From Plasmopara viticola (lineage: Eukaryota; Oomycota; Peronosporomycetes; Peronosporales; Peronosporaceae), in contig MBPM02000085.1 in the NCBI GenBank assembly GCA_001695595.3, positions 62,001 to 126,000 on the forward strand: 64,000 bases of DNA. Direction: 5' to 3'. Under the pieces are notes generated by a model. It had not been told where the DNA came from and did no database searches. It saw nothing but the letters and a program-made list of their open reading frames with translations. Both the position numbers and the translations under genes were made by a program. Shown here piece by piece: positions 9,256-59,313 of this stretch (positions are counted from its first letter, which is position 1; every line of letters starts with the position of its first letter).

Positions 9256-9259
9256 AACC

Positions 9260-33611: not shown

Positions 33612-33708
33612 ACAGACGCCTCGATTAGCGACTACATGGCGTCTGTCTGCCAACATCTTCGACAAGAGTCGTATCTCCAACAACAGACGCCTCGATTAGC
33701 GACTACAT
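33567..33708. repeat. 71-bp direct duplication at the palindrome centre
   Basis: Two identical units, 33567-33637 and 33638-33708. Each consists of LTR bases 45 to 1 read on the minus strand, then LTR bases 37 to 62 on the plus strand. The same strand switch therefore occurs twice with identical endpoints. Confidence 0.92.
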
Positions 33709-33954
33709 ATCGGTAAGTACCGGTATCTGCAATCAGTTGTTGACTGACTGAGGGAGCGGGTTCAAGATGGGCAAAAGATCGGTTTCGGGATGTGATTGCG
33801 CCCAGATGGGAAGATGATTGCGCCCGGATGGTGAGTTGTTCTGATTGGCTTAGATAAATCATTGGCTTAGAGGTAGCATGTAGTTGCGAACTAAGGACCT
33901 TTTAAAAATATTCACTTTGCATTTTACCAACTAGTGCACACTCGAGCTTCTTCA
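33683..33954 (+). repeat. 5' LTR of array unit 1, first 36 bp missing
   Basis: Plus-oriented LTR ending CTTCTTCA before the PBS of unit 1. It reads CAATCAGTTGTTGACTG, the state also seen in the inverted arm and close to that of other F2 LTRs. All five inner array LTRs read CAATAAGTTGTTGTCTG. Confidence 0.9.
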
Positions 33955-36900
33955 GGTTATGAGCCCAAGCTCCGTCTTCCCTGACTCCGACACCGACTTC
34001 GCCCTTGCCATGGACGCCTCCACCACCAACCGCATCAACAAGTTCGATGGAACGAACTTCCACACTTGGAAGTTTAAAATGCAGATGGTGCTGGAGGAGC
34101 GTGACTTGTGGGAAGTGGTGAGCGGGGAGATCAAGCTGGAACACCTGACTACTGCGCTGGACCAGAACACGTTCAAGCGCAAGTCGAGGAAGGCGCTCGC
34201 GATCATCTGTCTTGCGATGGAGGACTCGCAGCTGCCGTTAGTTCGTTCGGCGAGTGGGGCACACGATGCATGGTCGCGGCTTGAGGGGCATTTCGAGAAG
34301 AAGAGCCTTGCGAATAAGCTCTTTCTTCGTCGTCGCTTCTTCACGGCCAAGATGGATGAGGGGAAGATGTGCTCGCGCACATTAACAAGATGAAGACGCT
34401 GGCGGAGCAGCTCGACGCTGTGGGTGCTCCGATAAGCGAGGACGACCTTGTGATCACGCTATTGGCAAGTCTCAGCGAGTCGTACGCGTTTCTTATCACG
34501 GCACTCGAGTCAAGAGCCGACTCATTATCGTGGAACTCGTCACGTCTCGGCTGCTACACGAAGACTTAAAGCGCAAAGAGCAAGGTGGCGGCGTCGATGG
34601 AGCCGCGCACGGCCAAGGTCAAGCATTTGCAATGGCGGACAATGGACGACGCAAGGGACGACAAGCGTCAGTGAAGGCAAGCAGTACTTGCCACTACTGT
34701 GGAGAGCATGGGCATTGGATTGCCAAGTGCCCAGCTCGAATTCGTGACAATGCGGAACGACAGCGACCGCAGCGTGCTAGTGTCGCGCAAAGTAACGATG
34801 ACGACTCTGGCGACTATCTTTTCTCGGTTGGTGAAGCTGCCTATCCCACCAAGTCGAGCTGTGTGTGGCTAGTTGACTCGGGGGCCACTCAACACATGAC
34901 ATACTCGAAAGAGTACATGAAAAACTACAAGAGAATTGACCCAGTGGATGTGCATCTCGCGGATGATGGCGTGGTTCAAGCTGTGGGGACGGGTGACATC
35001 GTTATGTCGATGTTTACGCCTCGCGGAATGAAGAAGGGTGTTCTCACTTCGGTTTGGCACATTCCAAAGCTTTCACGCAATTTGTTCTCCGTTGGACGCT
35101 TTACAAAGGATGTTGGCCCAGTCACGTTTGAGCACGACGGCTGCTTTGCTGAAGCAAAAGGTCTTCGCTGGAAGTTGGGCGCTCGTGAGGGAAAGGGGCT
35201 GTTCAAGCTCTGCATGAAGCCAATTATTGAAGACGAGGCCAATTTGACTAGCTCGTTGGGATGCCATGGGGACACCACGTCGTACCTCTGGCACCTTCGA
35301 CTAGGTCACATTGGTCACGGTGGTCTTTCGACTATTGTTGCAAAAGGCTGTGGAGCAGGTATTGACCTGAAGTCTGTTAACAAGTGGGAGCTGTGCAAAG
35401 GATGCGCTCTTGGCAAACAGACGCGGGTAAGCTTCATGAAGTCTTCACCCAATCGGGCAAAGAAACTTCTTGAAGTCATTCACAGCGATGTGTGTGGACC
35501 CATGCAAACGGCGACATTCAGTGGCAAGCGCTATTTTGCTACTTTTATCGATGAGAAGTCGCATTACTGTGCTGTATACTTGCTACGAAACAAGTCCGAG
35601 GTTGCCGACAAGTTTGCTGCTTTCGTTGCGATGGCCGAAAACCAGACGAACATGCGCGTTAAATCACTCTGTTGTCATAATGGTGGCGAGTACACTTCTC
35701 GAACAATGGCTAAGTTTTGTGCAGAGCGTGGCATCATACAGAAGTTTACGCCACCATACACGCCACAACTGAATGGAGTCGCAGAACGCATGAATCGTAC
35801 ACTTGTTGAATGTGGACGATGTATGCTGGAGCACGCTGGTCTGCCAAAAACTTATTGGGGTGAAGCTGTTTTAACTGCTGCGTTTCTTCGCAACCGATGT
35901 CCGACACGAGCTGTTGAACATAATACGTCGCCGTTTCAGCTGTGGACTGGCAAGAAGCCTTTGTTGGCAAATTTGAAGGTATTCGGCTGCCATGCTTACG
36001 TCTCGGTTCCCAAAGAGAAACGATCCAAGTTTGATGCACGTTCGACTCGATGCCGTTTCCTTGGCTATTCGGATCATGAAAAGGCGTACAGGTTTGAAGA
36101 AATCGGTAGCGGTCGCGTTCTATTGAGTCGGGACGCAAATTACATGGAAGATACTTTTGACGACGAGAAACCAAGTACCAAGTCGTCAGAAGCTGTATTT
36201 GACGAGACCGAAACAGCCAATTTTGACCGCTCAGAAAATGAAAACGCTATGCAAGATCAGGACATGGAGCCTGAAAAGAAGCAGCACGCAGGCACTCAGC
36301 CTATTGTGGACTTGGATTTTGAGCCTGGCAGCAAACGACACCAGCGGAACCAATCGCTTGAAAAAGCAGCGAATATTCCAACAGCAAAGAGGTCAACTCG
36401 CTATCAATCGCTGGAGGAAATGTCTGCTACGGCCCAAGATTTCGAAGTGGCCTTTGTTGTGGATTCAGTGGGAGAAATGCCGACAACTTTCAAGTCGGCA
36501 ATGGAATCCAGCAACGCGGCCGAATGGAAAGAGGCGTGTGATGCCGAAGTGAGCTCTCTTCGCAAGAACAAGACCTGGGACTTAGTACCTTTGCCGAAAG
36601 GTCGCCAGGCTATTGGCTGTAGATGGGTCTTCCGGATCAAAGAAAATCAAGCCGGAAAGATCGAGCGGTTCAAAGCACGACTCGTGGCCAAAGGCTTTTC
36701 TCAGAAGTATGGAGTCGACTACGAAGAGACTTTCGCTCCAGTGGCCAAGTTTACTTCGATCAGGATTCTACTAAGTCTGTCGGCCAAGCACAATTTAATG
36801 CTGCATCAGATGGACGTCAAGACAGCCTTTCTCAATGGCACTTTGGACGAGGACATTTACATGGCGCAACCGGATGGATATGTCAACGACGTATACCCAA

Positions 36901-38060
36901 ACTACGTCTGTCAGCGAAAGCGCTCCCTTTATGGTTTGAAGCAGTCGCCACGGATGTGGAACCAGACAATTGACGCGTTCATGCTGGAAATAAAGTTTAC
37001 GAAGTGTGATGCCGACCATTGCATTTACGTCAAGCGCAATGACGAAGAATTGATCCTCGTGGCACTTTACGTTGATGACCTGGTGCTTGCGTGCAACAAC
37101 GACTTGCTGCTGAAGAGGACTAAAAAGCACTCAGCGAGCGATTCGAAATGACGGATCTTGGTCGACTCAAGTTCTTTTTGGGCATGGAGATTCATCAAGA
37201 AACTTTGAGTGGTAACGTGTCCATTCGCCAGACAAAATTCGCGAGTGACATCTTGAAAAAGTTTGGAATGGAATACAGCAATCCCGTCAGGACACCGCAA
37301 GATCCGGGACTCAAGTTGACCAAGGCCATGTGCGAAGGGGGTGTTGTCATGAAGAGACGATGGCAAAAGTCCCTTATCGAAATGCCGTTGGTTGCCTCAT
37401 GTACTTGATGGTCGGGACTCGGCCGGACCTAGCAGCCTCAGTGGGAGTTCTCAGCCAATTTGCCTCGGACCCATGTCCAACTCACTGGCAGGCACTCAAA
37501 AGGGTCTTCCGATACATTCAAGGAACAAAGACGCACGGCATTACATTTCAAGCTCAAAACCAAGAAGGACTTCGAGGCTATTCCGATGCAGATTGGGCAG
37601 GCGATTTGGAAACCCGAAGAAGCACAAGCGGTTATGCGTTCATGATGAATGGAGGTTGCATCAGCTGGAGAAGCAAGAAACAACGGACAGTGGCACTTTC
37701 TTCTACAGAAGCAGAGTACATGGCTTTGACAGAAGCAGCTCAAGAGGCAACTTGGTTAAAAACCTTTCTGTGCGAACTTGGTGAACTATCAAGAGGTCAA
37801 GCGATCAAGATCTACGAGAACAATCAAGGTTCCATCGCTTTGGCTAAGAATCCAGAGTTTCACAAGCGCACCAAGCATATCGACATTCGGTACCACTTCG
37901 TGCGGGAGAAAGTAGAAGACGGTCAAGTCATGCTGCAGTATTGTTCGACGCACGACATGCTCGCTGACATCATGACCGAGCCAATAACTGCGGCCCAATT
38001 TCAATATCTTCGGAACAAATTGGGCATCAAGTCTCCAAGCGCTGACGAGTCGAGTGGGAG
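33955..38060 (+). pseudogene. gag-pol: Array unit 1 internal region (gag-pol, most damaged)
   Basis: PBS 33955, ATG 33959. It has the damage common to the array plus its own: a G-run shortened near 34363 (GAGGGGAAG) breaks Gag early, an A-run shortened near 37125 breaks RT after YVDD, and Leu becomes Arg near 36914 (CQRKRSLYG). The long frame is 34530-37151 (second half of Gag to RT) and RNase H is open at 37330-38130. The common 5-G run near 37338 splits RT from RNase H. Integrase carries CCHNGGEY near 35680. Confidence 0.92.
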
Positions 38061-38368
38061 TGTTGGAGATACGACTCTTGTCGAAGATGTTGGCAGACAG
38101 ACGCCTCGATTAGCGACTACATATCGGTAAGTACCGGTATCTGCAATAAGTTGTTGTCTGACTGAGGGAGCGGGTTCAAGATGGGCAAAAGATCGGTTTC
38201 GGGATGTGATTGCGCCCAGATGGGAAGATGATTGCGCCCGGATGGTGAGTTGTTCTGATTGGCTTAGATAAATCATTGGCTTAGAGGTAGCATGTAGTTG
38301 CGAACTAAGGACCTTTTAAAAATATTCACTTTGCATTTTACCAACTAGTGCACACTCGAGCTTCTTCA
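38061..38368 (+). repeat. LTR between array units 1 and 2 (308 bp)
   Basis: TGTTGGAGAT ... CTTCTTCA, preceded by the polypurine tract GAGTCGAGTGGGAG and followed by the PBS. It serves as 3' LTR of unit 1 and 5' LTR of unit 2. It carries the two inner-LTR substitutions relative to 33683-33954. Confidence 0.95.
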
Positions 38369-38372
38369 GGTT

Positions 38373-41300
38373 ATGAGCCCAAGCTCCGTCTTCCCTGACT
38401 CCGACACCGACTTCGCCCTTGCCATGGACGCCTCCACCACCAACCGCATCAACAAGTTCGATGGAACGAACTTCCACACTTGGAAGTTTAAAATGCAGAT
38501 GGTGCTGGAGGAGCGTGACTTGTGGGAAGTGGTGAGCGGGGAGATCAAGCTGGAACACCTGACTACTGCGCTGGACCAGAACACGTTCAAGCGCAAGTCG
38601 AGGAAGGCGCTCGCGATCATCTGTCTTGCGATGGAGGACTCGCAGCTGCCGTTAGTTCGTTCGGCGAGTGGGGCACACGATGCATGGTCGCGGCTTGAGG
38701 GGCATTTCGAGAAGAAGAGCCTTGCGAATAAGCTCTTTCTTCGTCGTCGCTTCTTCACGGCCAAGATGGATGAGGGGGAAGATGTGCTCGCGCACATTAA
38801 CAAGATGAAGACGCTGGCGGAGCAGCTCGACGCTGTGGGTGCTCCGATAAGCGAGGACGACCTTGTGATCACGCTATTGGCAAGTCTCAGCGAGTCGTAC
38901 GCGTTTCTTATCACGGCACTCGAGTCAAGAGCCGACTCATTATCGTGGAACTCGTCACGTCTCGGCTGCTACACGAAGACTTAAAGCGCAAAGAGCAAGG
39001 TGGCGGCGTCGATGGAGCCGCGCACGGCCAAGGTCAAGCATTTGCAATGGCGGACAATGGACGACGCAAGGGACGACAAGCGTCAGTGAAGGCAAGCAGT
39101 ACTTGCCACTACTGTGGAGAGCATGGGCATTGGATTGCCAAGTGCCCAGCTCGAATTCGTGACAATGCGGAACGACAGCGACCGCAGCGTGCTAGTGTCG
39201 CGCAAAGTAACGATGACGACTCTGGCGACTATCTTTTCTCGGTTGGTGAAGCTGCCTATCCCACCAAGTCGAGCTGTGTGTGGCTAGTTGACTCGGGGGC
39301 CACTCAACACATGACATACTCGAAAGAGTACATGAAAAACTACAAGAGAATTGACCCAGTGGATGTGCATCTCGCGGATGATGGCGTGGTTCAAGCTGTG
39401 GGGACGGGTGACATCGTTATGTCGATGTTTACGCCTCGCGGAATGAAGAAGGGTGTTCTCACTTCGGTTTGGCACATTCCAAAGCTTTCACGCAATTTGT
39501 TCTCCGTTGGACGCTTTACAAAGGATGTTGGCCCAGTCACGTTTGAGCACGACGGCTGCTTTGCTGAAGCAAAAGGTCTTCGCTGGAAGTTGGGCGCTCG
39601 TGAGGGAAAGGGGCTGTTCAAGCTCTGCATGAAGCCAATTATTGAAGACGAGGCCAATTTGACTAGCTCGTTGGGATGCCATGGGGACACCACGTCGTAC
39701 CTCTGGCACCTTCGACTAGGTCACATTGGTCACGGTGGTCTTTCGACTATTGTTGCAAAAGGCTGTGGAGCAGGTATTGACCTGAAGTCTGTTAACAAGT
39801 GGGAGCTGTGCAAAGGATGCGCTCTTGGCAAACAGACGCGGGTAAGCTTCATGAAGTCTTCACCCAATCGGGCAAAGAAACTTCTTGAAGTCATTCACAG
39901 CGATGTGTGTGGACCCATGCAAACGGCGACATTCAGTGGCAAGCGCTATTTTGCTACTTTTATCGATGAGAAGTCGCATTACTGTGCTGTATACTTGCTA
40001 CGAAACAAGTCCGAGGTTGCCGACAAGTTTGCTGCTTTCGTTGCGATGGCCGAAAACCAGACGAACATGCGCGTTAAATCACTCTGTTGTCATAATGGTG
40101 GCGAGTACACTTCTCGAACAATGGCTAAGTTTTGTGCAGAGCGTGGCATCATACAGAAGTTTACGCCACCATACACGCCACAACTGAATGGAGTCGCAGA
40201 ACGCATGAATCGTACACTTGTTGAATGTGGACGATGTATGCTGGAGCACGCTGGTCTGCCAAAAACTTATTGGGGTGAAGCTGTTTTAACTGCTGCGTTT
40301 CTTCGCAACCGATGTCCGACACGAGCTGTTGAACATAATACGTCGCCGTTTCAGCTGTGGACTGGCAAGAAGCCTTTGTTGGCAAATTTGAAGGTATTCG
40401 GCTGCCATGCTTACGTCTCGGTTCCCAAAGAGAAACGATCCAAGTTTGATGCACGTTCGACTCGATGCCGTTTCCTTGGCTATTCGGATCATGAAAAGGC
40501 GTACAGGTTTGAAGAAATCGGTAGCGGTCGCGTTCTATTGAGTCGGGACGCAAATTACATGGAAGATACTTTTGACGACGAGAAACCAAGTACCAAGTCG
40601 TCAGAAGCTGTATTTGACGAGACCGAAACAGCCAATTTTGACCGCTCAGAAAATGAAAACGCTATGCAAGATCAGGACATGGAGCCTGAAAAGAAGCAGC
40701 ACGCAGGCACTCAGCCTATTGTGGACTTGGATTTTGAGCCTGGCAGCAAACGACACCAGCGGAACCAATCGCTTGAAAAAGCAGCGAATATTCCAACAGC
40801 AAAGAGGTCAACTCGCTATCAATCGCTGGAGGAAATGTCTGCTACGGCCCAAGATTTCGAAGTGGCCTTTGTTGTGGATTCAGTGGGAGAAATGCCGACA
40901 ACTTTCAAGTCGGCAATGGAATCCAGCAACGCGGCCGAATGGAAAGAGGCGTGTGATGCCGAAGTGAGCTCTCTTCGCAAGAACAAGACCTGGGACTTAG
41001 TACCTTTGCCGAAAGGTCGCCAGGCTATTGGCTGTAGATGGGTCTTCCGGATCAAAGAAAATCAAGCCGGAAAGATCGAGCGGTTCAAAGCACGACTCGT
41101 GGCCAAAGGCTTTTCTCAGAAGTATGGAGTCGACTACGAAGAGACTTTCGCTCCAGTGGCCAAGTTTACTTCGATCAGGATTCTACTAAGTCTGTCGGCC
41201 AAGCACAATTTAATGCTGCATCAGATGGACGTCAAGACAGCCTTTCTCAATGGCACTTTGGACGAGGACATTTACATGGCGCAACCGGATGGATATGTCA

Positions 41301-42546
41301 ACGACGTATACCCAAACTACGTCTGTCAGCTAAAGCGCTCCCTTTATGGTTTGAAGCAGTCGCCACGGATGTGGAACCAGACAATTGACGCGTTCATGCT
41401 GGAAATAAAGTTTACGAAGTGTGATGCCGACCATTGCATTTACGTCAAGCGCAATGACGAAGAATTGATCCTCGTGGCACTTTACGTTGATGACCTGGTG
41501 CTTGCGTGCAACAACGACTTGCTGCTGAAGAGGACTAAAAAAGCACTCAGCGAGCGATTCGAAATGACGGATCTTGGTCGACTCAAGTTCTTTTTGGGCA
41601 TGGAGATTCATCAAGAAACTTTGAGTGGTAACGTGTCCATTCGCCAGACAAAATTCGCGAGTGACATCTTGAAAAAGTTTGGAATGGAATACAGCAATCC
41701 CGTCAGGACACCGCAAGATCCGGGACTCAAGTTGACCAAGGCCATGTGCGAAGGGGGTGTTGTCATGAAGAGACGATGGCAAAAGTCCCTTATCGAAATG
41801 CCGTTGGTTGCCTCATGTACTTGATGGTCGGGACTCGGCCGGACCTAGCAGCCTCAGTGGGAGTTCTCAGCCAATTTGCCTCGGACCCATGTCCAACTCA
41901 CTGGCAGGCACTCAAAAGGGTCTTCCGATACATTCAAGGAACAAAGACGCACGGCATTACATTTCAAGCTCAAAACCAAGAAGGACTTCGAGGCTATTCC
42001 GATGCAGATTGGGCAGGCGATTTGGAAACCCGAAGAAGCACAAGCGGTTATGCGTTCATGATGAATGGAGGTTGCATCAGCTGGAGAAGCAAGAAACAAC
42101 GGACAGTGGCACTTTCTTCTACAGAAGCAGAGTACATGGCTTTGACAGAAGCAGCTCAAGAGGCAACTTGGTTAAAAACCTTTCTGTGCGAACTTGGTGA
42201 ACTATCAAGAGGTCAAGCGATCAAGATCTACGAGAACAATCAAGGTTCCATCGCTTTGGCTAAGAATCCAGAGTTTCACAAGCGCACCAAGCATATCGAC
42301 ATTCGGTACCACTTCGTGCGGGAGAAAGTAGAAGACGGTCAAGTCATGCTGCAGTATTGTTCGACGCACGACATGCTCGCTGACATCATGACCGAGCCAA
42401 TAACTGCGGCCCAATTTCAATATCTTCGGAACAAATTGGGCATCAAGTCTCCAAGCGCTGACGAGTCGAGTGGGAGTGTTGGAGATACGACTCTTGTCGA
42501 AGATGTTGGCAGACAGACGCCTCGATTAGCGACTACATATCGGTAA
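38373..42546 (+). pseudogene. gag-pol: Array unit 2 gag-pol
   Basis: Gag first part 38373-38984 (203 codons), then a one-base loss near 38947 (SLSW-ELVTSR). Gag second part to RT end is open at 38945-41824 (its listed start is internal, not a real start). A G-run of 5 near 41754 breaks MCEGGC, and RNase H continues in another frame from 41746 to the stop at 42544-42546 inside the next LTR. IN reads CCHNGGEY; RNase H reads YENNQGS. Confidence 0.93.
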
Positions 42547-42784
42547 GTACCGGTATCTGCAATAAGTTGTTGTCTGACTGAGGGAGCGGGTTCAAGATGG
42601 GCAAAAGATCGGTTTCGGGATGTGATTGCGCCCAGATGGGAAGATGATTGCGCCCGGATGGTGAGTTGTTCTGATTGGCTTAGATAAATCATTGGCTTAG
42701 AGGTAGCATGTAGTTGCGAACTAAGGACCTTTTAAAAATATTCACTTTGCATTTTACCAACTAGTGCACACTCGAGCTTCTTCA
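42477..42784 (+). repeat. LTR between array units 2 and 3 (308 bp)
   Basis: As the neighbouring inner LTRs. U3 includes two GCGCCCRGATGG repeats (near 42623-42661). The Inr-type core promoter is at 42740-42755, leaving about 40 bases of R/U5. The end is CTTCA rather than the CAACA of other F2 LTRs, so the terminal inverted repeat with TGTTG is degraded in this subfamily. Confidence 0.95.
42740..42755 (+). promoter_or_regulatory. Oomycete-type initiator in array LTR
   Basis: ATTCACTTTGCATTTT matches 13 of 16 positions of the Phytophthora core promoter consensus GCTCATTYYNCAWTTT. TTTAAAAATATT lies just upstream. The same motif recurs in every array LTR and in B, F and others. It predicts transcription starting about 45 bases before the gag AUG. 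Confidence 0.6.
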
Positions 42785-42800
42785 GGTTATGAGCCCAAGC
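42785..42800 (+). other. Primer-binding site with embedded gag AUG, unit 3
   Basis: GGTTATGAGCCCAAGC immediately after the LTR, identical in all six units and in B. It is complementary to an initiator-tRNA anticodon arm. The ATG at 42789 begins MSPSSVF. Confidence 0.72.
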
Positions 42801-43400
42801 TCCGTCTTCCCTGACTCCGACACCGACTTCGCCCTTGCCATGGACGCCTCCACCACCAACCGCATCAACAAGTTCGATGGAACGAACTTCCACACTTGGA
42901 AGTTTAAAATGCAGATGGTGCTGGAGGAGCGTGACTTGTGGGAAGTGGTGAGCGGGGAGATCAAGCTGGAACACCTGACTACTGCGCTGGACCAGAACAC
43001 GTTCAAGCGCAAGTCGAGGAAGGCGCTCGCGATCATCTGTCTTGCGATGGAGGACTCGCAGCTGCCGTTAGTTCGTTCGGCGAGTGGGGCACACGATGCA
43101 TGGTCGCGGCTTGAGGGGCATTTCGAGAAGAAGAGCCTTGCGAATAAGCTCTTTCTTCGTCGTCGCTTCTTCACGGCCAAGATGGATGAGGGGGAAGATG
43201 TGCTCGCGCACATTAACAAGATGAAGACGCTGGCGGAGCAGCTCGACGCTGTGGGTGCTCCGATAAGCGAGGACGACCTTGTGATCACGCTATTGGCAAG
43301 TCTCAGCGAGTCGTACGCGTTTCTTATCACGGCACTCGAGTCAAGAGCCGACTCATTATCGTGGAACTCGTCACGTCTCGGCTGCTACACGAAGACTTAA
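42789..43400 (+). pseudogene. gag: Gag N-terminal ORF, array unit 3 (203 codons)
   Basis: From the PBS ATG: MSPSSVFPDSDTDF, then KFDGTNFHTWKFKMQM, RKALAIICLAMEDSQLP and the UBN2-like core to LITALESRADSLSW. Here a GGG of relatives (TCTTGGGAG in M) is GG, and the frame runs to TAA after 12 foreign codons. The Gag C-terminus, knuckle and pol lie in the -1 frame. I see no slippery heptamer at the break, and M, C and others have Gag joined to protease or knuckle in one frame, so this is a mutation rather than a programmed shift. Confidence 0.9.
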
Positions 43401-46400
43401 AGCGCAAAGAGCAAGGTGGCGGCGTCGATGGAGCCGCGCACGGCCAAGGTCAAGCATTTGCAATGGCGGACAATGGACGACGCAAGGGACGACAAGCGTC
43501 AGTGAAGGCAAGCAGTACTTGCCACTACTGTGGAGAGCATGGGCATTGGATTGCCAAGTGCCCAGCTCGAATTCGTGACAATGCGGAACGACAGCGACCG
43601 CAGCGTGCTAGTGTCGCGCAAAGTAACGATGACGACTCTGGCGACTATCTTTTCTCGGTTGGTGAAGCTGCCTATCCCACCAAGTCGAGCTGTGTGTGGC
43701 TAGTTGACTCGGGGGCCACTCAACACATGACATACTCGAAAGAGTACATGAAAAACTACAAGAGAATTGACCCAGTGGATGTGCATCTCGCGGATGATGG
43801 CGTGGTTCAAGCTGTGGGGACGGGTGACATCGTTATGTCGATGTTTACGCCTCGCGGAATGAAGAAGGGTGTTCTCACTTCGGTTTGGCACATTCCAAAG
43901 CTTTCACGCAATTTGTTCTCCGTTGGACGCTTTACAAAGGATGTTGGCCCAGTCACGTTTGAGCACGACGGCTGCTTTGCTGAAGCAAAAGGTCTTCGCT
44001 GGAAGTTGGGCGCTCGTGAGGGAAAGGGGCTGTTCAAGCTCTGCATGAAGCCAATTATTGAAGACGAGGCCAATTTGACTAGCTCGTTGGGATGCCATGG
44101 GGACACCACGTCGTACCTCTGGCACCTTCGACTAGGTCACATTGGTCACGGTGGTCTTTCGACTATTGTTGCAAAAGGCTGTGGAGCAGGTATTGACCTG
44201 AAGTCTGTTAACAAGTGGGAGCTGTGCAAAGGATGCGCTCTTGGCAAACAGACGCGGGTAAGCTTCATGAAGTCTTCACCCAATCGGGCAAAGAAACTTC
44301 TTGAAGTCATTCACAGCGATGTGTGTGGACCCATGCAAACGGCGACATTCAGTGGCAAGCGCTATTTTGCTACTTTTATCGATGAGAAGTCGCATTACTG
44401 TGCTGTATACTTGCTACGAAACAAGTCCGAGGTTGCCGACAAGTTTGCTGCTTTCGTTGCGATGGCCGAAAACCAGACGAACATGCGCGTTAAATCACTC
44501 TGTTGTCATAATGGTGGCGAGTACACTTCTCGAACAATGGCTAAGTTTTGTGCAGAGCGTGGCATCATACAGAAGTTTACGCCACCATACACGCCACAAC
44601 TGAATGGAGTCGCAGAACGCATGAATCGTACACTTGTTGAATGTGGACGATGTATGCTGGAGCACGCTGGTCTGCCAAAAACTTATTGGGGTGAAGCTGT
44701 TTTAACTGCTGCGTTTCTTCGCAACCGATGTCCGACACGAGCTGTTGAACATAATACGTCGCCGTTTCAGCTGTGGACTGGCAAGAAGCCTTTGTTGGCA
44801 AATTTGAAGGTATTCGGCTGCCATGCTTACGTCTCGGTTCCCAAAGAGAAACGATCCAAGTTTGATGCACGTTCGACTCGATGCCGTTTCCTTGGCTATT
44901 CGGATCATGAAAAGGCGTACAGGTTTGAAGAAATCGGTAGCGGTCGCGTTCTATTGAGTCGGGACGCAAATTACATGGAAGATACTTTTGACGACGAGAA
45001 ACCAAGTACCAAGTCGTCAGAAGCTGTATTTGACGAGACCGAAACAGCCAATTTTGACCGCTCAGAAAATGAAAACGCTATGCAAGATCAGGACATGGAG
45101 CCTGAAAAGAAGCAGCACGCAGGCACTCAGCCTATTGTGGACTTGGATTTTGAGCCTGGCAGCAAACGACACCAGCGGAACCAATCGCTTGAAAAAGCAG
45201 CGAATATTCCAACAGCAAAGAGGTCAACTCGCTATCAATCGCTGGAGGAAATGTCTGCTACGGCCCAAGATTTCGAAGTGGCCTTTGTTGTGGATTCAGT
45301 GGGAGAAATGCCGACAACTTTCAAGTCGGCAATGGAATCCAGCAACGCGGCCGAATGGAAAGAGGCGTGTGATGCCGAAGTGAGCTCTCTTCGCAAGAAC
45401 AAGACCTGGGACTTAGTACCTTTGCCGAAAGGTCGCCAGGCTATTGGCTGTAGATGGGTCTTCCGGATCAAAGAAAATCAAGCCGGAAAGATCGAGCGGT
45501 TCAAAGCACGACTCGTGGCCAAAGGCTTTTCTCAGAAGTATGGAGTCGACTACGAAGAGACTTTCGCTCCAGTGGCCAAGTTTACTTCGATCAGGATTCT
45601 ACTAAGTCTGTCGGCCAAGCACAATTTAATGCTGCATCAGATGGACGTCAAGACAGCCTTTCTCAATGGCACTTTGGACGAGGACATTTACATGGCGCAA
45701 CCGGATGGATATGTCAACGACGTATACCCAAACTACGTCTGTCAGCTAAAGCGCTCCCTTTATGGTTTGAAGCAGTCGCCACGGATGTGGAACCAGACAA
45801 TTGACGCGTTCATGCTGGAAATAAAGTTTACGAAGTGTGATGCCGACCATTGCATTTACGTCAAGCGCAATGACGAAGAATTGATCCTCGTGGCACTTTA
45901 CGTTGATGACCTGGTGCTTGCGTGCAACAACGACTTGCTGCTGAAGAGGACTAAAAAAGCACTCAGCGAGCGATTCGAAATGACGGATCTTGGTCGACTC
46001 AAGTTCTTTTTGGGCATGGAGATTCATCAAGAAACTTTGAGTGGTAACGTGTCCATTCGCCAGACAAAATTCGCGAGTGACATCTTGAAAAAGTTTGGAA
46101 TGGAATACAGCAATCCCGTCAGGACACCGCAAGATCCGGGACTCAAGTTGACCAAGGCCATGTGCGAAGGGGGGTGTTGTCATGAAGAGACGATGGCAAA
46201 AGTCCCTTATCGAAATGCCGTTGGTTGCCTCATGTACTTGATGGTCGGGACTCGGCCGGACCTAGCAGCCTCAGTGGGAGTTCTCAGCCAATTTGCCTCG
46301 GACCCATGTCCAACTCACTGGCAGGCACTCAAAAGGGTCTTCCGATACATTCAAGGAACAAAGACGCACGGCATTACATTTCAAGCTCAAAACCAAGAAG

Positions 46401-46963
46401 GACTTCGAGGCTATTCCGATGCAGATTGGGCAGGCGATTTGGAAACCCGAAGAAGCACAAGCGGTTATGCGTTCATGATGAATGGAGGTTGCATCAGCTG
46501 GAGAAGCAAGAAACAACGGACAGTGGCACTTTCTTCTACAGAAGCAGAGTACATGGCTTTGACAGAAGCAGCTCAAGAGGCAACTTGGTTAAAAACCTTT
46601 CTGTGCGAACTTGGTGAACTATCAAGAGGTCAAGCGATCAAGATCTACGAGAACAATCAAGGTTCCATCGCTTTGGCTAAGAATCCAGAGTTTCACAAGC
46701 GCACCAAGCATATCGACATTCGGTACCACTTCGTGCGGGAGAAAGTAGAAGACGGTCAAGTCATGCTGCAGTATTGTTCGACGCACGACATGCTCGCTGA
46801 CATCATGACCGAGCCAATAACTGCGGCCCAATTTCAATATCTTCGGAACAAATTGGGCATCAAGTCTCCAAGCGCTGACGAGTCGAGTGGGAGTGTTGGA
46901 GATACGACTCTTGTCGAAGATGTTGGCAGACAGACGCCTCGATTAGCGACTACATATCGGTAA
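43361..46963 (+). pseudogene. pol: Gag C-terminus and complete Pol, array unit 3 (1,200 codons open)
   Basis: The best-preserved pol of the window. CCHC knuckle 43520-43561 (CHYCGEHGHWIAKC); protease Asp-Ser-Gly 43706-43714; pre-integrase LWHLRLGHIGHGG; integrase HSDVCGPMQT; RT with YVDD at 45899-45910; RNase H DADWAGD at 46418-46438 and STEAEYMAL. The stop is 70 bases into the LTR (tail TPRLATTYR). Two catalytic residues are lost: the second integrase Asp is His (44507-44509, CCHNGGEY; the Glu at D,D-35-E spacing is kept) and the third RNase H Asp is Asn (46652-46654, YENNQGS; EDN in B, F, G, L, N). Only this unit has the 6-G run near 46150 that keeps RT and RNase H in frame. The open frame has no real start codon. 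Confidence 0.93.
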
Positions 46964-47201
46964 GTACCGGTATCTGCAATAAGTTGTTGTCTGACTGAGG
47001 GAGCGGGTTCAAGATGGGCAAAAGATCGGTTTCGGGATGTGATTGCGCCCAGATGGGAAGATGATTGCGCCCGGATGGTGAGTTGTTCTGATTGGCTTAG
47101 ATAAATCATTGGCTTAGAGGTAGCATGTAGTTGCGAACTAAGGACCTTTTAAAAATATTCACTTTGCATTTTACCAACTAGTGCACACTCGAGCTTCTTC
47201 A
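46894..47201 (+). repeat. LTR between array units 3 and 4 (308 bp)
   Basis: Same inner-LTR type, and no difference seen from 42477-42784. It contains the last 23 codons of unit 3 pol plus its stop (46961-46963). Confidence 0.95.
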
Positions 47202-47205
47202 GGTT

Positions 47206-50200
47206 ATGAGCCCAAGCTCCGTCTTCCCTGACTCCGACACCGACTTCGCCCTTGCCATGGACGCCTCCACCACCAACCGCATCAACAAGTTCGATGGAAC
47301 GAACTTCCACACTTGGAAGTTTAAAATGCAGATGGTGCTGGAGGAGCGTGACTTGTGGGAAGTGGTGAGCGGGGAGATCAAGCTGGAACACCTGACTACT
47401 GCGCTGGACCAGAACACGTTCAAGCGCAAGTCGAGGAAGGCGCTCGCGATCATCTGTCTTGCGATGGAGGACTCGCAGCTGCCGTTAGTTCGTTCGGCGA
47501 GTGGGGCACACGATGCATGGTCGCGGCTTGAGGGGCATTTCGAGAAGAAGAGCCTTGCGAATAAGCTCTTTCTTCGTCGTCGCTTCTTCACGGCCAAGAT
47601 GGATGAGGGGGAAGATGTGCTCGCGCACATTAACAAGATGAAGACGCTGGCGGAGCAGCTCGACGCTGTGGGTGCTCCGATAAGCGAGGACGACCTTGTG
47701 ATCACGCTATTGGCAAGTCTCAGCGAGTCGTACGCGTTTCTTATCACGGCACTCGAGTCAAGAGCCGACTCATTATCGTGGAACTCGTCACGTCTCGGCT
47801 GCTACACGAAGACTTAAAGCGCAAAGAGCAAGGTGGCGGCGTCGATGGAGCCGCGCACGGCCAAGGTCAAGCATTTGCAATGGCGGACAATGGACGACGC
47901 AAGGGACGACAAGCGTCAGTGAAGGCAAGCAGTACTTGCCACTACTGTGGAGAGCATGGGCATTGGATTGCCAAGTGCCCAGCTCGAATTCGTGACAATG
48001 CGGAACGACAGCGACCGCAGCGTGCTAGTGTCGCGCAAAGTAACGATGACGACTCTGGCGACTATCTTTTCTCGGTTGGTGAAGCTGCCTATCCCACCAA
48101 GTCGAGCTGTGTGTGGCTAGTTGACTCGGGGGCCACTCAACACATGACATACTCGAAAGAGTACATGAAAAACTACAAGAGAATTGACCCAGTGGATGTG
48201 CATCTCGCGGATGATGGCGTGGTTCAAGCTGTGGGGACGGGTGACATCGTTATGTCGATGTTTACGCCTCGCGGAATGAAGAAGGGTGTTCTCACTTCGG
48301 TTTGGCACATTCCAAAGCTTTCACGCAATTTGTTCTCCGTTGGACGCTTTACAAAGGATGTTGGCCCAGTCACGTTTGAGCACGACGGCTGCTTTGCTGA
48401 AGCAAAAGGTCTTCGCTGGAAGTTGGGCGCTCGTGAGGGAAAGGGGCTGTTCAAGCTCTGCATGAAGCCAATTATTGAAGACGAGGCCAATTTGACTAGC
48501 TCGTTGGGATGCCATGGGGACACCACGTCGTACCTCTGGCACCTTCGACTAGGTCACATTGGTCACGGTGGTCTTTCGACTATTGTTGCAAAAGGCTGTG
48601 GAGCAGGTATTGACCTGAAGTCTGTTAACAAGTGGGAGCTGTGCAAAGGATGCGCTCTTGGCAAACAGACGCGGGTAAGCTTCATGAAGTCTTCACCCAA
48701 TCGGGCAAAGAAACTTCTTGAAGTCATTCACAGCGATGTGTGTGGACCCATGCAAACGGCGACATTCAGTGGCAAGCGCTATTTTGCTACTTTTATCGAT
48801 GAGAAGTCGCATTACTGTGCTGTATACTTGCTACGAAACAAGTCCGAGGTTGCCGACAAGTTTGCTGCTTTCGTTGCGATGGCCGAAAACCAGACGAACA
48901 TGCGCGTTAAATCACTCTGTTGTCATAATGGTGGCGAGTACACTTCTCGAACAATGGCTAAGTTTTGTGCAGAGCGTGGCATCATACAGAAGTTTACGCC
49001 ACCATACACGCCACAACTGAATGGAGTCGCAGAACGCATGAATCGTACACTTGTTGAATGTGGACGATGTATGCTGGAGCACGCTGGTCTGCCAAAAACT
49101 TATTGGGGTGAAGCTGTTTTAACTGCTGCGTTTCTTCGCAACCGATGTCCGACACGAGCTGTTGAACATAATACGTCGCCGTTTCAGCTGTGGACTGGCA
49201 AGAAGCCTTTGTTGGCAAATTTGAAGGTATTCGGCTGCCATGCTTACGTCTCGGTTCCCAAAGAGAAACGATCCAAGTTTGATGCACGTTCGACTCGATG
49301 CCGTTTCCTTGGCTATTCGGATCATGAAAAGGCGTACAGGTTTGAAGAAATCGGTAGCGGTCGCGTTCTATTGAGTCGGGACGCAAATTACATGGAAGAT
49401 ACTTTTGACGACGAGAAACCAAGTACCAAGTCGTCAGAAGCTGTATTTGACGAGACCGAAACAGCCAATTTTGACCGCTCAGAAAATGAAAACGCTATGC
49501 AAGATCAGGACATGGAGCCTGAAAAGAAGCAGCACGCAGGCACTCAGCCTATTGTGGACTTGGATTTTGAGCCTGGCAGCAAACGACACCAGCGGAACCA
49601 ATCGCTTGAAAAAGCAGCGAATATTCCAACAGCAAAGAGGTCAACTCGCTATCAATCGCTGGAGGAAATGTCTGCTACGGCCCAAGATTTCGAAGTGGCC
49701 TTTGTTGTGGATTCAGTGGGAGAAATGCCGACAACTTTCAAGTCGGCAATGGAATCCAGCAACGCGGCCGAATGGAAAGAGGCGTGTGATGCCGAAGTGA
49801 GCTCTCTTCGCAAGAACAAGACCTGGGACTTAGTACCTTTGCCGAAAGGTCGCCAGGCTATTGGCTGTAGATGGGTCTTCCGGATCAAAGAAAATCAAGC
49901 CGGAAAGATCGAGCGGTTCAAAGCACGACTCGTGGCCAAAGGCTTTTCTCAGAAGTATGGAGTCGACTACGAAGAGACTTTCGCTCCAGTGGCCAAGTTT
50001 ACTTCGATCAGGATTCTACTAAGTCTGTCGGCCAAGCACAATTTAATGCTGCATCAGATGGACGTCAAGACAGCCTTTCTCAATGGCACTTTGGACGAGG
50101 ACATTTACATGGCGCAACCGGATGGATATGTCAACGACGTATACCCAAACTACGTCTGTCAGCTAAAGCGCTCCCTTTATGGTTTGAAGCAGTCGCCACG

Positions 50201-51379
50201 GATGTGGAACCAGACAATTGACGCGTTCATGCTGGAAATAAAGTTTACGAAGTGTGATGCCGACCATTGCATTTACGTCAAGCGCAATGACGAAGAATTG
50301 ATCCTCGTGGCACTTTACGTTGATGACCTGGTGCTTGCGTGCAACAACGACTTGCTGCTGAAGAGGACTAAAAAAGCACTCAGCGAGCGATTCGAAATGA
50401 CGGATCTTGGTCGACTCAAGTTCTTTTTGGGCATGGAGATTCATCAAGAAACTTTGAGTGGTAACGTGTCCATTCGCCAGACAAAATTCGCGAGTGACAT
50501 CTTGAAAAAGTTTGGAATGGAATACAGCAATCCCGTCAGGACACCGCAAGATCCGGGACTCAAGTTGACCAAGGCCATGTGCGAAGGGGGTGTTGTCATG
50601 AAGAGACGATGGCAAAAGTCCCTTATCGAAATGCCGTTGGTTGCCTCATGTACTTGATGGTCGGGACTCGGCCGGACCTAGCAGCCTCAGTGGGAGTTCT
50701 CAGCCAATTTGCCTCGGACCCATGTCCAACTCACTGGCAGGCACTCAAAAGGGTCTTCCGATACATTCAAGGAACAAAGACGCACGGCATTACATTTCAA
50801 GCTCAAAACCAAGAAGGACTTCGAGGCTATTCCGATGCAGATTGGGCAGGCGATTTGGAAACCCGAAGAAGCACAAGCGGTTATGCGTTCATGATGAATG
50901 GAGGTTGCATCAGCTGGAGAAGCAAGAAACAACGGACAGTGGCACTTTCTTCTACAGAAGCAGAGTACATGGCTTTGACAGAAGCAGCTCAAGAGGCAAC
51001 TTGGTTAAAAACCTTTCTGTGCGAACTTGGTGAACTATCAAGAGGTCAAGCGATCAAGATCTACGAGAACAATCAAGGTTCCATCGCTTTGGCTAAGAAT
51101 CCAGAGTTTCACAAGCGCACCAAGCATATCGACATTCGGTACCACTTCGTGCGGGAGAAAGTAGAAGACGGTCAAGTCATGCTGCAGTATTGTTCGACGC
51201 ACGACATGCTCGCTGACATCATGACCGAGCCAATAACTGCGGCCCAATTTCAATATCTTCGGAACAAATTGGGCATCAAGTCTCCAAGCGCTGACGAGTC
51301 GAGTGGGAGTGTTGGAGATACGACTCTTGTCGAAGATGTTGGCAGACAGACGCCTCGATTAGCGACTACATATCGGTAA
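47206..51379 (+). pseudogene. gag-pol: Array unit 4 gag-pol
   Basis: Gag 47206-47817, broken at the shared GG. Gag C-terminus to RT end at 47778-50657, then the 5-G run near 50587 breaks it. RNase H is at 50579-51379. Integrase His in CCHNGGEY lies near 48925, and RNase H reads YENNQGS. I see no difference from unit 2 apart from position. Confidence 0.93.
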
Positions 51380-51617
51380 GTACCGGTATCTGCAATAAGT
51401 TGTTGTCTGACTGAGGGAGCGGGTTCAAGATGGGCAAAAGATCGGTTTCGGGATGTGATTGCGCCCAGATGGGAAGATGATTGCGCCCGGATGGTGAGTT
51501 GTTCTGATTGGCTTAGATAAATCATTGGCTTAGAGGTAGCATGTAGTTGCGAACTAAGGACCTTTTAAAAATATTCACTTTGCATTTTACCAACTAGTGC
51601 ACACTCGAGCTTCTTCA
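51310..51617 (+). repeat. LTR between array units 4 and 5 (308 bp)
   Basis: Inner-LTR type, with boundaries set by the polypurine tract before it and the PBS after it. Confidence 0.95.
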
Positions 51618-51621
51618 GGTT

Positions 51622-54600
51622 ATGAGCCCAAGCTCCGTCTTCCCTGACTCCGACACCGACTTCGCCCTTGCCATGGACGCCTCCACCACCAACCGCATCA
51701 ACAAGTTCGATGGAACGAACTTCCACACTTGGAAGTTTAAAATGCAGATGGTGCTGGAGGAGCGTGACTTGTGGGAAGTGGTGAGCGGGGAGATCAAGCT
51801 GGAACACCTGACTACTGCGCTGGACCAGAACACGTTCAAGCGCAAGTCGAGGAAGGCGCTCGCGATCATCTGTCTTGCGATGGAGGACTCGCAGCTGCCG
51901 TTAGTTCGTTCGGCGAGTGGGGCACACGATGCATGGTCGCGGCTTGAGGGGCATTTCGAGAAGAAGAGCCTTGCGAATAAGCTCTTTCTTCGTCGTCGCT
52001 TCTTCACGGCCAAGATGGATGAGGGGGAAGATGTGCTCGCGCACATTAACAAGATGAAGACGCTGGCGGAGCAGCTCGACGCTGTGGGTGCTCCGATAAG
52101 CGAGGACGACCTTGTGATCACGCTATTGGCAAGTCTCAGCGAGTCGTACGCGTTTCTTATCACGGCACTCGAGTCAAGAGCCGACTCATTATCGTGGAAC
52201 TCGTCACGTCTCGGCTGCTACACGAAGACTTAAAGCGCAAAGAGCAAGGTGGCGGCGTCGATGGAGCCGCGCACGGCCAAGGTCAAGCATTTGCAATGGC
52301 GGACAATGGACGACGCAAGGGACGACAAGCGTCAGTGAAGGCAAGCAGTACTTGCCACTACTGTGGAGAGCATGGGCATTGGATTGCCAAGTGCCCAGCT
52401 CGAATTCGTGACAATGCGGAACGACAGCGACCGCAGCGTGCTAGTGTCGCGCAAAGTAACGATGACGACTCTGGCGACTATCTTTTCTCGGTTGGTGAAG
52501 CTGCCTATCCCACCAAGTCGAGCTGTGTGTGGCTAGTTGACTCGGGGGCCACTCAACACATGACATACTCGAAAGAGTACATGAAAAACTACAAGAGAAT
52601 TGACCCAGTGGATGTGCATCTCGCGGATGATGGCGTGGTTCAAGCTGTGGGGACGGGTGACATCGTTATGTCGATGTTTACGCCTCGCGGAATGAAGAAG
52701 GGTGTTCTCACTTCGGTTTGGCACATTCCAAAGCTTTCACGCAATTTGTTCTCCGTTGGACGCTTTACAAAGGATGTTGGCCCAGTCACGTTTGAGCACG
52801 ACGGCTGCTTTGCTGAAGCAAAAGGTCTTCGCTGGAAGTTGGGCGCTCGTGAGGGAAAGGGGCTGTTCAAGCTCTGCATGAAGCCAATTATTGAAGACGA
52901 GGCCAATTTGACTAGCTCGTTGGGATGCCATGGGGACACCACGTCGTACCTCTGGCACCTTCGACTAGGTCACATTGGTCACGGTGGTCTTTCGACTATT
53001 GTTGCAAAAGGCTGTGGAGCAGGTATTGACCTGAAGTCTGTTAACAAGTGGGAGCTGTGCAAAGGATGCGCTCTTGGCAAACAGACGCGGGTAAGCTTCA
53101 TGAAGTCTTCACCCAATCGGGCAAAGAAACTTCTTGAAGTCATTCACAGCGATGTGTGTGGACCCATGCAAACGGCGACATTCAGTGGCAAGCGCTATTT
53201 TGCTACTTTTATCGATGAGAAGTCGCATTACTGTGCTGTATACTTGCTACGAAACAAGTCCGAGGTTGCCGACAAGTTTGCTGCTTTCGTTGCGATGGCC
53301 GAAAACCAGACGAACATGCGCGTTAAATCACTCTGTTGTCATAATGGTGGCGAGTACACTTCTCGAACAATGGCTAAGTTTTGTGCAGAGCGTGGCATCA
53401 TACAGAAGTTTACGCCACCATACACGCCACAACTGAATGGAGTCGCAGAACGCATGAATCGTACACTTGTTGAATGTGGACGATGTATGCTGGAGCACGC
53501 TGGTCTGCCAAAAACTTATTGGGGTGAAGCTGTTTTAACTGCTGCGTTTCTTCGCAACCGATGTCCGACACGAGCTGTTGAACATAATACGTCGCCGTTT
53601 CAGCTGTGGACTGGCAAGAAGCCTTTGTTGGCAAATTTGAAGGTATTCGGCTGCCATGCTTACGTCTCGGTTCCCAAAGAGAAACGATCCAAGTTTGATG
53701 CACGTTCGACTCGATGCCGTTTCCTTGGCTATTCGGATCATGAAAAGGCGTACAGGTTTGAAGAAATCGGTAGCGGTCGCGTTCTATTGAGTCGGGACGC
53801 AAATTACATGGAAGATACTTTTGACGACGAGAAACCAAGTACCAAGTCGTCAGAAGCTGTATTTGACGAGACCGAAACAGCCAATTTTGACCGCTCAGAA
53901 AATGAAAACGCTATGCAAGATCAGGACATGGAGCCTGAAAAGAAGCAGCACGCAGGCACTCAGCCTATTGTGGACTTGGATTTTGAGCCTGGCAGCAAAC
54001 GACACCAGCGGAACCAATCGCTTGAAAAAGCAGCGAATATTCCAACAGCAAAGAGGTCAACTCGCTATCAATCGCTGGAGGAAATGTCTGCTACGGCCCA
54101 AGATTTCGAAGTGGCCTTTGTTGTGGATTCAGTGGGAGAAATGCCGACAACTTTCAAGTCGGCAATGGAATCCAGCAACGCGGCCGAATGGAAAGAGGCG
54201 TGTGATGCCGAAGTGAGCTCTCTTCGCAAGAACAAGACCTGGGACTTAGTACCTTTGCCGAAAGGTCGCCAGGCTATTGGCTGTAGATGGGTCTTCCGGA
54301 TCAAAGAAAATCAAGCCGGAAAGATCGAGCGGTTCAAAGCACGACTCGTGGCCAAAGGCTTTTCTCAGAAGTATGGAGTCGACTACGAAGAGACTTTCGC
54401 TCCAGTGGCCAAGTTTACTTCGATCAGGATTCTACTAAGTCTGTCGGCCAAGCACAATTTAATGCTGCATCAGATGGACGTCAAGACAGCCTTTCTCAAT
54501 GGCACTTTGGACGAGGACATTTACATGGCGCAACCGGATGGATATGTCAACGACGTATACCCAAACTACGTCTGTCAGCTAAAGCGCTCCCTTTATGGTT

Positions 54601-55795
54601 TGAAGCAGTCGCCACGGATGTGGAACCAGACAATTGACGCGTTCATGCTGGAAATAAAGTTTACGAAGTGTGATGCCGACCATTGCATTTACGTCAAGCG
54701 CAATGACGAAGAATTGATCCTCGTGGCACTTTACGTTGATGACCTGGTGCTTGCGTGCAACAACGACTTGCTGCTGAAGAGGACTAAAAAAGCACTCAGC
54801 GAGCGATTCGAAATGACGGATCTTGGTCGACTCAAGTTCTTTTTGGGCATGGAGATTCATCAAGAAACTTTGAGTGGTAACGTGTCCATTCGCCAGACAA
54901 AATTCGCGAGTGACATCTTGAAAAAGTTTGGAATGGAATACAGCAATCCCGTCAGGACACCGCAAGATCCGGGACTCAAGTTGACCAAGGCCATGTGCGA
55001 AGGGGGTGTTGTCATGAAGAGACGATGGCAAAAGTCCCTTATCGAAATGCCGTTGGTTGCCTCATGTACTTGATGGTCGGGACTCGGCCGGACCTAGCAG
55101 CCTCAGTGGGAGTTCTCAGCCAATTTGCCTCGGACCCATGTCCAACTCACTGGCAGGCACTCAAAAGGGTCTTCCGATACATTCAAGGAACAAAGACGCA
55201 CGGCATTACATTTCAAGCTCAAAACCAAGAAGGACTTCGAGGCTATTCCGATGCAGATTGGGCAGGCGATTTGGAAACCCGAAGAAGCACAAGCGGTTAT
55301 GCGTTCATGATGAATGGAGGTTGCATCAGCTGGAGAAGCAAGAAACAACGGACAGTGGCACTTTCTTCTACAGAAGCAGAGTACATGGCTTTGACAGAAG
55401 CAGCTCAAGAGGCAACTTGGTTAAAAACCTTTCTGTGCGAACTTGGTGAACTATCAAGAGGTCAAGCGATCAAGATCTACGAGAACAATCAAGGTTCCAT
55501 CGCTTTGGCTAAGAATCCAGAGTTTCACAAGCGCACCAAGCATATCGACATTCGGTACCACTTCGTGCGGGAGAAAGTAGAAGACGGTCAAGTCATGCTG
55601 CAGTATTGTTCGACGCACGACATGCTCGCTGACATCATGACCGAGCCAATAACTGCGGCCCAATTTCAATATCTTCGGAACAAATTGGGCATCAAGTCTC
55701 CAAGCGCTGACGAGTCGAGTGGGAGTGTTGGAGATACGACTCTTGTCGAAGATGTTGGCAGACAGACGCCTCGATTAGCGACTACATATCGGTAA
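51622..55795 (+). pseudogene. gag-pol: Array unit 5 gag-pol
   Basis: Gag 51622-52233; Gag C-terminus to RT 52194-55073; 5-G break near 55003; RNase H 54995-55795. It shares the integrase Asp-to-His and RNase H Asp-to-Asn changes with the other units and has no unit-specific lesion that I can see. Confidence 0.93.
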
Positions 55796-56033
55796 GTACC
55801 GGTATCTGCAATAAGTTGTTGTCTGACTGAGGGAGCGGGTTCAAGATGGGCAAAAGATCGGTTTCGGGATGTGATTGCGCCCAGATGGGAAGATGATTGC
55901 GCCCGGATGGTGAGTTGTTCTGATTGGCTTAGATAAATCATTGGCTTAGAGGTAGCATGTAGTTGCGAACTAAGGACCTTTTAAAAATATTCACTTTGCA
56001 TTTTACCAACTAGTGCACACTCGAGCTTCTTCA
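55726..56033 (+). repeat. LTR between array units 5 and 6 (308 bp)
   Basis: Inner-LTR type. It is the last array LTR in the window, because unit 6 is cut before reaching its own 3' LTR. Confidence 0.95.
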
Positions 56034-56037
56034 GGTT

Positions 56038-59309: not shown

Positions 59310-59313
59310 GGTT

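What the first reader, a model, noticed from the sequence alone, without database searches (positions are those of the whole stretch)
44507..46654. Integrase Asp-to-His and RNase H Asp-to-Asn fixed across the array
In unit 3 the second residue of the integrase D,D-35-E triad is His (CCHNGGEY, 44507-44509) and the third RNase H Asp is Asn (YENNQGS, 46652-46654). The His is in all six units, and the Asn is in all five units that retain RNase H. Fragment H, nearly the same integrase, has Asp (CCDNGGEY), and B, F and M also have Asp. RNase H reads EDN in B, F, G, L and N. Such changes abolish activity in related enzymes. A copy with no working integrase that reaches six units argues for DNA-level expansion or cDNA recombination into its own LTRs.
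Basis: partly seen in the sequence, partly recalled or inferred. Interest (0 to 1): 0.9.

Follow-up and report, generated by a model that had tools for sequence, protein, structure and literature searches.

The report
Tandem array of dead Copia elements
A broken retrotransposon in what looks like a water-mould (oomycete) genome appears to have been copied into a row of seven by recombination of chromosomal DNA rather than by jumping, while its relatives elsewhere mostly keep the active-site residues and show the marks of normal jumping; such rows are already known from other organisms, so this is a clear example rather than a new kind of thing.

Summary
The codons are as described: integrase second catalytic residue CAT (His), third RNase H carboxylate AAC (Asn). 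The host assembly (93 Mb; Peronosporales-like by its protein relatives) holds seven units, not six. Unit 6 is not truncated: a 14-kb element with identical LTRs and a 5-bp target duplication interrupts it. His is in 7/7 units, Asn in 6/7; the outermost unit 7 keeps Asp. Among 40 scored integrase matches the 33 non-array copies all have Asp. Of eight with both ends examined, six have perfect 5-bp target duplications. Among the 40 LTR candidates scored, array-type LTRs (97% or more) lie only at this locus. Lesions are nested: His and a gag frameshift in all seven units; Asn in units 1-6; units 2, 4 and 5 identical. Internal LTRs combine one derived site of the right LTR with one of the left LTR, as LTR-LTR exchange predicts. 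This is best read as stepwise DNA-level growth from one already defective copy. Asp-bearing copies here also lie in head-to-tail LTR junctions, so integrase loss is not needed. cDNA recombination is less likely but not excluded. It is a well-ordered case of a known phenomenon, perhaps in a centromere-like Copia cluster (inferred).

The parts
33304..33611 (-). complete LTR in inverted orientation, head-to-head with the array's first LTR; no matching target duplication at its two ends
   Evidence: 99% identical to the array LTR, minus strand; flanks read directly
33567..33708 (.). 71-bp unit repeated twice at the inverted-LTR junction
   Evidence: Tandem Repeats Finder; piece map
33683..33954 (+). 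leftmost LTR of the array, lacking its first 36 bp
   Evidence: LTR positions 37-308, 2 substitutions from the internal LTRs
33955..38060 (+). unit 1 internal region (His and Asn present)
   Evidence: 1 substitution and 3 one-base gaps against unit 3
38061..38368 (+). internal LTR between units 1 and 2
38369..42476 (+). unit 2 internal region
   Evidence: differs from unit 3 by one base of a G run
42477..42784 (+). internal LTR between units 2 and 3
42785..46893 (+). unit 3 internal region, the unit of the finding
44507..44509 (+). CAT (His) at the second catalytic integrase position, unit 3; also 35676-35678, 40091-40093, 48924-48926, 53340-53342, 57756-57758
   Evidence: alignment to Ty1 and HIV-1 integrase
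46652..46654 (+). AAC (Asn) at the third RNase H carboxylate, unit 3; also 37819-37821, 42235-42237, 51068-51070, 55484-55486
   Evidence: conservation; fold
43330..43375 (+). gag reading-frame lesion: stretch one base shorter in all seven units than in the 24 dispersed loci that could be measured
   Evidence: 24 of 33 loci measurable, all 24 one base longer
46894..47201 (+). 308-bp LTR between units 3 and 4 (TG...CA)
47202..51309 (+). unit 4 internal region
51310..51617 (+). internal LTR between units 4 and 5
51618..55725 (+). unit 5 internal region
55726..56033 (+). internal LTR between units 5 and 6
56034..58975 (+). unit 6, left part; interrupted at 58975/58976 by a later insertion and resuming outside the window (C85:135050-136220)
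   Evidence: 5-bp duplication GTATA
58976..64000 (+). start of the 14,074-bp insertion in unit 6: a Copia element with 334-bp LTRs, 334/334 identical, with two further nested LTR pairs inside; continues beyond the window to C85:135049

Best explanation
One Ty1/copia copy already carrying the integrase Asp-to-His change and a gag frameshift was multiplied in place, as chromosomal DNA, by unequal exchange or copying between its LTRs (sister-chromatid crossover or break-induced copying), giving LTR-internal-LTR-internal units of about 4,416 bp. RNase H Asp-to-Asn arose in one unit after the first duplication and was carried into units 1-6; unit 7 at the edge kept Asp. Exchange and conversion keep the interior alike while the edges diverge. 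Two other Copia elements later integrated into units 6 and 7 in the ordinary way. SHOWN: the sequence states, their nesting, the hybrid pattern of the internal LTRs (one site per side), the target duplications, the His motif being confined to the array. INFERRED: that crossover or break-induced copying did it, the order of events, and that His and Asn abolish activity.
For: (1) Seven head-to-tail units share single internal LTRs. (2) Nested lesions: 15 sites (one is His) are common to all seven units and seen in no dispersed locus covering them; 4 sites (one is Asn) are derived in units 1-6 only; 7 are private to unit 7 (outgroup 33 integrase and 23 RNase H loci, at least 8 copies being in both sets; sites with fewer than 5 outgroup loci, 7, and 4 missing in unit 7 were dropped). 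The gag frameshift is in all seven. (3) Internal LTRs 1/2 to 5/6 are identical, 6/7 differs only by a 9-bp gap. Against 12 dispersed LTRs from 7 copies, all six internal LTRs have one derived site of their own (88), one shared only with the right LTR (97) and one shared only with the left LTR (261): the hybrid expected from exchange between a 3' and a 5' LTR, though with one site per side. (4) Units 2, 4, 5 alike; unit 3 one base of a G run; unit 1 one substitution; unit 6 five; unit 7 seventeen. (5) Unit 6 shares 2 clean derived sites (and one unclear) with unit 7 and 4 with units 1-5, a four-gamete conflict expected from exchange within an array. (6) Left edge: inverted LTR plus a 71-bp duplication, a DNA rearrangement. 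(7) His motif 7 in the genome, all in the array; Asp motif 45. LTRs of 97% identity or more only at this locus, next 96% (40 scored of 1,197 candidates). (8) Same genome: RNase H motifs on both strands recur at about 7.04 kb on C8, with four 501-bp samples 499-501/501 identical; judged from motif places and samples, the block itself was not read.
Against: No reads were available, so the number of identical interior units rests on the assembly. The array has no target duplication of its own, because both ends are rearranged, so the original insertion cannot be shown. Unit 3 alone has the G-run length found in 28 of 35 measurable dispersed loci (of 56): a conversion, a reversion or an assembly error, unexplained. 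Of the 15 private sites 7 are nonsynonymous where about 78% (computed on the pol frame) would be expected without constraint (binomial P 0.008), so much of that branch was under constraint and the lesions are probably late; this fits but does not prove the order. The inverted LTR has the ancestral state at all three diagnostic sites, so it is of the array's type but is not shown to be copied from the first LTR. cDNA recombination preferring the array's own LTRs would look much the same, hybrid LTRs included.
Confidence: 0.78

Rival explanations
1. Integrase-independent retrotransposition: cDNA of the array element, made with enzymes supplied in trans, recombined into the array's LTRs and added units.
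For: Known in principle: a review (PMC12786077, passages) says integrase-dead Tf1 keeps about 5% insertion activity and that tandem insertion is a hallmark; PMC11899658 cites Ty5 and Tf1 work for tandems. Asp/Asp relatives could supply enzymes in trans. Hybrid internal LTRs fit this route too.
Against: All 7 His copies sit at one locus although 32 other near-full LTRs of 88-96% identity were listed and 286 pol-end/LTR motifs exist genome-wide. No unit is an introgressed Asp-integrase copy. Every unit has a broken gag frame, six have a shorter pol G run and six have RNase H Asn, so packaging and synthesis would need help in trans. The inverted-LTR edge is not an expected product of this route.
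Confidence: 0.14
2. One-shot insertion of a tandem multimer made during replication (read-through RNA from a one-LTR circle).
For: Proposed for plant tandems in PMC11899658 (discussion read).
Against: Predicts equal units at insertion that then diverge at random. Here the lesions are hierarchical, the interior is alike and the edges carry ancestral states.
Confidence: 0.04
3. Assembly artefact: one or two defective copies expanded by the assembler.
For: Units 2, 4 and 5 are alike and no reads are available.
Against: Units 1, 3, 6 and 7, LTR 6/7 and both edges have private differences; units 6 and 7 carry separate insertions with 5-bp duplications.
Confidence: 0.04

Closest known systems
Tandem LTR-retrotransposon structures of plants (PMC11899658; parts 1, 3 and 4 of 6 read)
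   Same: alternating LTR and internal regions sharing internal LTRs
   Different: those are described as flanked by target duplications; here both array ends are rearranged. Here catalytic and frame lesions order the steps. Host looks like an oomycete.
Cassandra TRIM arrays (PMC7215508, abstract read)
   Same: long tandem arrays with the LTR as part of the unit, attributed to recombination
   Different: Cassandra lacks coding regions; here coding units with changed active sites
Tf1/Tf2 and Ty5 cDNA recombination (passages of PMC12786077 and PMC4981269; the original Ty5 and Tf1 papers are not held)
   Same: LTR elements entering homologous sites without integrase
   Different: those act through cDNA; here the pattern favours DNA copying, with no spread to other homologous sites seen
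CoLT Copia clusters of Phytophthora sojae centromeres (PMC7082073, abstract and passages read)
   Same: Copia elements clustered in some regions of an oomycete genome; most copies with frameshifts
   Different: identity of this family with CoLT not tested; 'tandem' does not occur in the main text held

Membership tests
Ty1/copia LTR retrotransposon | integrase core of the retroviral/copia type | tested here: met
   Pfam rve PF00665 and PF25597; Ty1 integrase 7z0h E 1.3e-23
Ty1/copia LTR retrotransposon | integrase upstream of reverse transcriptase and RNase H | tested here: met
   order integrase, YVDD motif, RNase H along the unit; YVDD recognised from memory
Ty1/copia LTR retrotransposon | LTRs TG...CA and 5-bp target duplications in dispersed members | tested here: met
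   6 of the 8 dispersed copies examined, out of 33 (the C120 duplication read by eye from the printed flank)
Ty1/copia LTR retrotransposon | all catalytic residues of integrase and RNase H present in the array units | tested here: not met
   His 7/7, Asn 6/7; array units are defective relatives by descent
Tandem LTR-RT array (PMC11899658) | units share internal LTRs | tested here: met
Tandem LTR-RT array (PMC11899658) | whole array flanked by one target duplication | tested here: inconclusive
   both edges rearranged
Product of integrase-independent cDNA recombination | same copies also found at other homologous sites, or mixed donors in the array | tested here: not met
   His motif confined to one locus; array LTR type too, among 40 scored of 1,197 candidates
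CoLT centromere element | sequence membership of CoLT / Copia-24_PIT | not testable with these tools
   the reference sequence lies in a supplementary file; no supplement look-ups were available
CoLT centromere element | clustered genomic distribution | tested here: met
   29 of 45 Asp motifs have another within 50 kb, 2.1 expected if uniform; local tandem arrays inflate this

The most novel reading that the evidence does not exclude
The locus is a coding-element satellite being born inside a centromere-like Copia cluster of an oomycete. Once an element loses its own enzymes it stops spreading and grows as a tandem DNA repeat instead, so inactivating catalytic changes are kept and homogenised rather than lost. 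Two catalytic hits among 10 nonsynonymous changes in the array's history (P about 0.003 by a simple count that assumes 11 catalytic residues, recalled, in 1,404 codons, and picked after the fact) would then reflect tolerance of, or preference for, silent arrays.
Probability: 0.12. Interest if true: 0.6.

Novelty: new member of a known kind. Interest (0 to 1): 0.36.

Why it matters
How LTR-retrotransposon tandems arise is stated as open in the 2025 plant study (PMC11899658). This array carries independent lesions in nested order, which makes a single insertion and stepwise DNA growth distinguishable, and the same genome has other repeat blocks and head-to-tail junctions bearing Asp as controls. 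It also warns that copy number within an array is no evidence that an element is active.

Tried and rejected
Rejected: 'unit 6 truncated' (it is interrupted). Rejected: 'integrase loss is needed for tandem formation' (head-to-tail LTR junctions also follow Asp-bearing copies). Rejected: Asn as a unique marker. The degenerate Asn motif also hits four places outside the array, C19, C278, C148 and C187. The translated stretches of C19, C278 and C187 contain stops; C148 is about 79% identical and open in the piece read. Results against a clean picture: one of the 33 non-array RNase H copies has Gly (L091), and one of the 33 non-array integrase copies has lost the third residue (L024) while keeping the second Asp. 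Dropped on re-checking: that the inverted LTR was copied from the first LTR. The site I had used is ancestral.

Led nowhere: Pfam and PDB sequence searches for the RNase H piece found nothing useful, hence the fold prediction. A genome-wide count of LTR-sharing junctions by gapped pattern did not complete. Three papers were not held. I did not test the primer-binding site against a tRNA.

Full report

THE ARRAY IS LARGER THAN THE WINDOW SHOWS. Mapping LTR and 400-bp pieces on 98 kb of C85 gives seven units from C85:95683 to 145642, LTR 308 bp, spacing about 4,416 bp. Unit 6 stops at window 58975 and resumes at C85:135050; the 14,074-bp insertion starts and ends with identical 334-bp LTRs, is flanked by GTATA on both sides, and holds two further identical LTR pairs. 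Unit 7 is split by a 4,730-bp element with 339-bp LTRs (3 differences), flanked by AAGAC, with Copia-type gag and reverse transcriptase domains (PF14223, PF07727). These look like ordinary integrase-type insertions, later than the units they split.

WHERE HIS AND ASN OCCUR. Of the 40 integrase matches scored (of 407 candidates), 7 have His, all array units, and 33 have Asp. Of the 40 RNase H matches scored (of 512), 6 have Asn (units 1-6), 33 have Asp (one is unit 7) and one fragment has Gly. Degenerate motifs over the whole assembly: His 7, all in the array; Asp 45. Asn 10, six in the array and four in other, more distant copies; Asp 173. Patterns of this kind miss copies with other neighbouring residues.

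DISPERSED COPIES JUMP NORMALLY. For 8 of the 33 Asp copies both ends were examined: 6 have perfect 5-bp target duplications (C104, C103, C50, one on C8, one on C54, C120); the other C8 copy and the other C54 copy lie in head-to-tail junctions. LTR pairs differ by 0, 1, 2, 3 (plus a 1-base gap) and 18 (plus a 22-base gap) substitutions in the five pairs compared, so several insertions are recent.

HISTORY OF THE ARRAY. Polarised by dispersed loci (33 integrase and 23 RNase H loci; at least 8 copies are in both sets), 15 substitutions including His are common to all seven units and in none of the dispersed loci covering the site; 4 including Asn are derived in units 1-6 only; 7 are private to unit 7; 24 further sites carry in all seven units a state that is a minority among the dispersed loci. 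The gag stretch is one base shorter in all seven units than in all 24 measurable dispersed loci. A G run in pol is one base shorter in six of seven units; of 35 measurable dispersed loci 28 have the unit-3 length, 6 are one base shorter and one is much shorter. Units 2, 4 and 5 are alike; unit 7 is the most diverged. Unit 6 mixes derived states of unit 7 (2 clean sites, one unclear) and of units 1-5 (4 sites), which needs exchange between units or parallel mutation. The order inferred is: defective copy, first duplication, Asn in one unit, growth to at least six, then the two insertions.

THE LTRs. Against 12 LTRs from 7 dispersed copies, the six internal LTRs share one derived site found in neither terminal LTR, one found also in the right LTR only, and one found also in the left LTR only. 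A 3' LTR joined to a 5' LTR by exchange would give this hybrid. With one diagnostic site per side it is supportive, not conclusive. The right LTR has several changes of its own.

EDGES. On the left a complete inverted LTR abuts the first LTR, which lacks 36 bp, with a 71-bp segment repeated twice. The inverted LTR is 99% like the array's but has the ancestral state at all three diagnostic sites, so its source is not shown. On the right the last LTR changes type near its end and leads into what looks like the gag start of a different element; three of 23 dispersed RNase H loci show the same kind of switch.

WHY DNA-LEVEL GROWTH. Among 40 LTR matches scored of 1,197 candidates, LTRs of 97% identity or more are only at this locus, so no spread of this lineage was seen, although 32 other near-full LTRs of 88-96% were listed as possible recombination targets. 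Other repeat blocks exist: RNase H motifs of both strands recur at about 7.04 kb on C8 (four 501-bp samples 499-501/501 identical), and Asp-type integrase motifs recur at about 2.95 kb on C54 (samples 497-501/501). The C8 block seems to contain oppositely oriented pieces and would then not be one cDNA; it was judged from motif places and samples only. The cDNA route remains possible in principle, since it is reported from yeast (review passages).

CONTEXT. The copies are clustered: 29 of 45 Asp motifs have another within 50 kb against 2.1 expected, though tandem blocks inflate this. In P. sojae clustered Copia elements mark centromeres (PMC7082073, abstract and passages). That this locus is centromeric is an inference only.

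PRINT STATUS. Tandem LTR-retrotransposon arrays are known (PMC11899658, PMC7215508). My searches for oomycete cases showed 12 of 16, 10 of 160 and 10 of 341 papers; none names such an array in its title or abstract start, though one is on satellite DNA of Phytophthora parasitica (PMC7290008, listing only). This is not proof of absence.

Noticed in passing
G000:C8:3279-40993 (L097-L100 are samples): About five copies of a 7.04-kb block with RNase H motifs on both strands, spacing near 7,040 bp: probably a segmental tandem duplication of nested retroelements.
   Followed up: partly
G000:C54:423162-446785 (L101-L104 are samples): Integrase motifs with Asp repeated at about 2.95 kb, six hits fitting perhaps nine periods: another tandem array, not changed at this residue.
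   Followed up: partly
G000:C6:578729 and 583146: Two RNase H motifs with Asp exactly 4,417 bp apart on one strand, probably a tandem dimer.
   Followed up: no
window 33304-33708: Head-to-head LTRs with a 71-bp duplication, a fold-back type junction at the array edge.
   Followed up: partly
window 7978-9610 and 28363-29995: 1,633-bp inverted repeat, 99% complementary, 18.8 kb apart: two copies of another Copia subfamily by their ORFs.
   Followed up: no
unit 3, window about 46155-46190: Only unit 3 has the longer G run, and hence the long open frame; units 1, 2, 4, 5, 6 and 7 are one base shorter.
   Followed up: partly
proteins P0009, P0029, P0031, P0035, P0042, P0060, P0063, P0065: Source names 'RxLR effector' on proteins that match Copia RNase H: possibly misannotation of retrotransposon fragments.
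   Followed up: no
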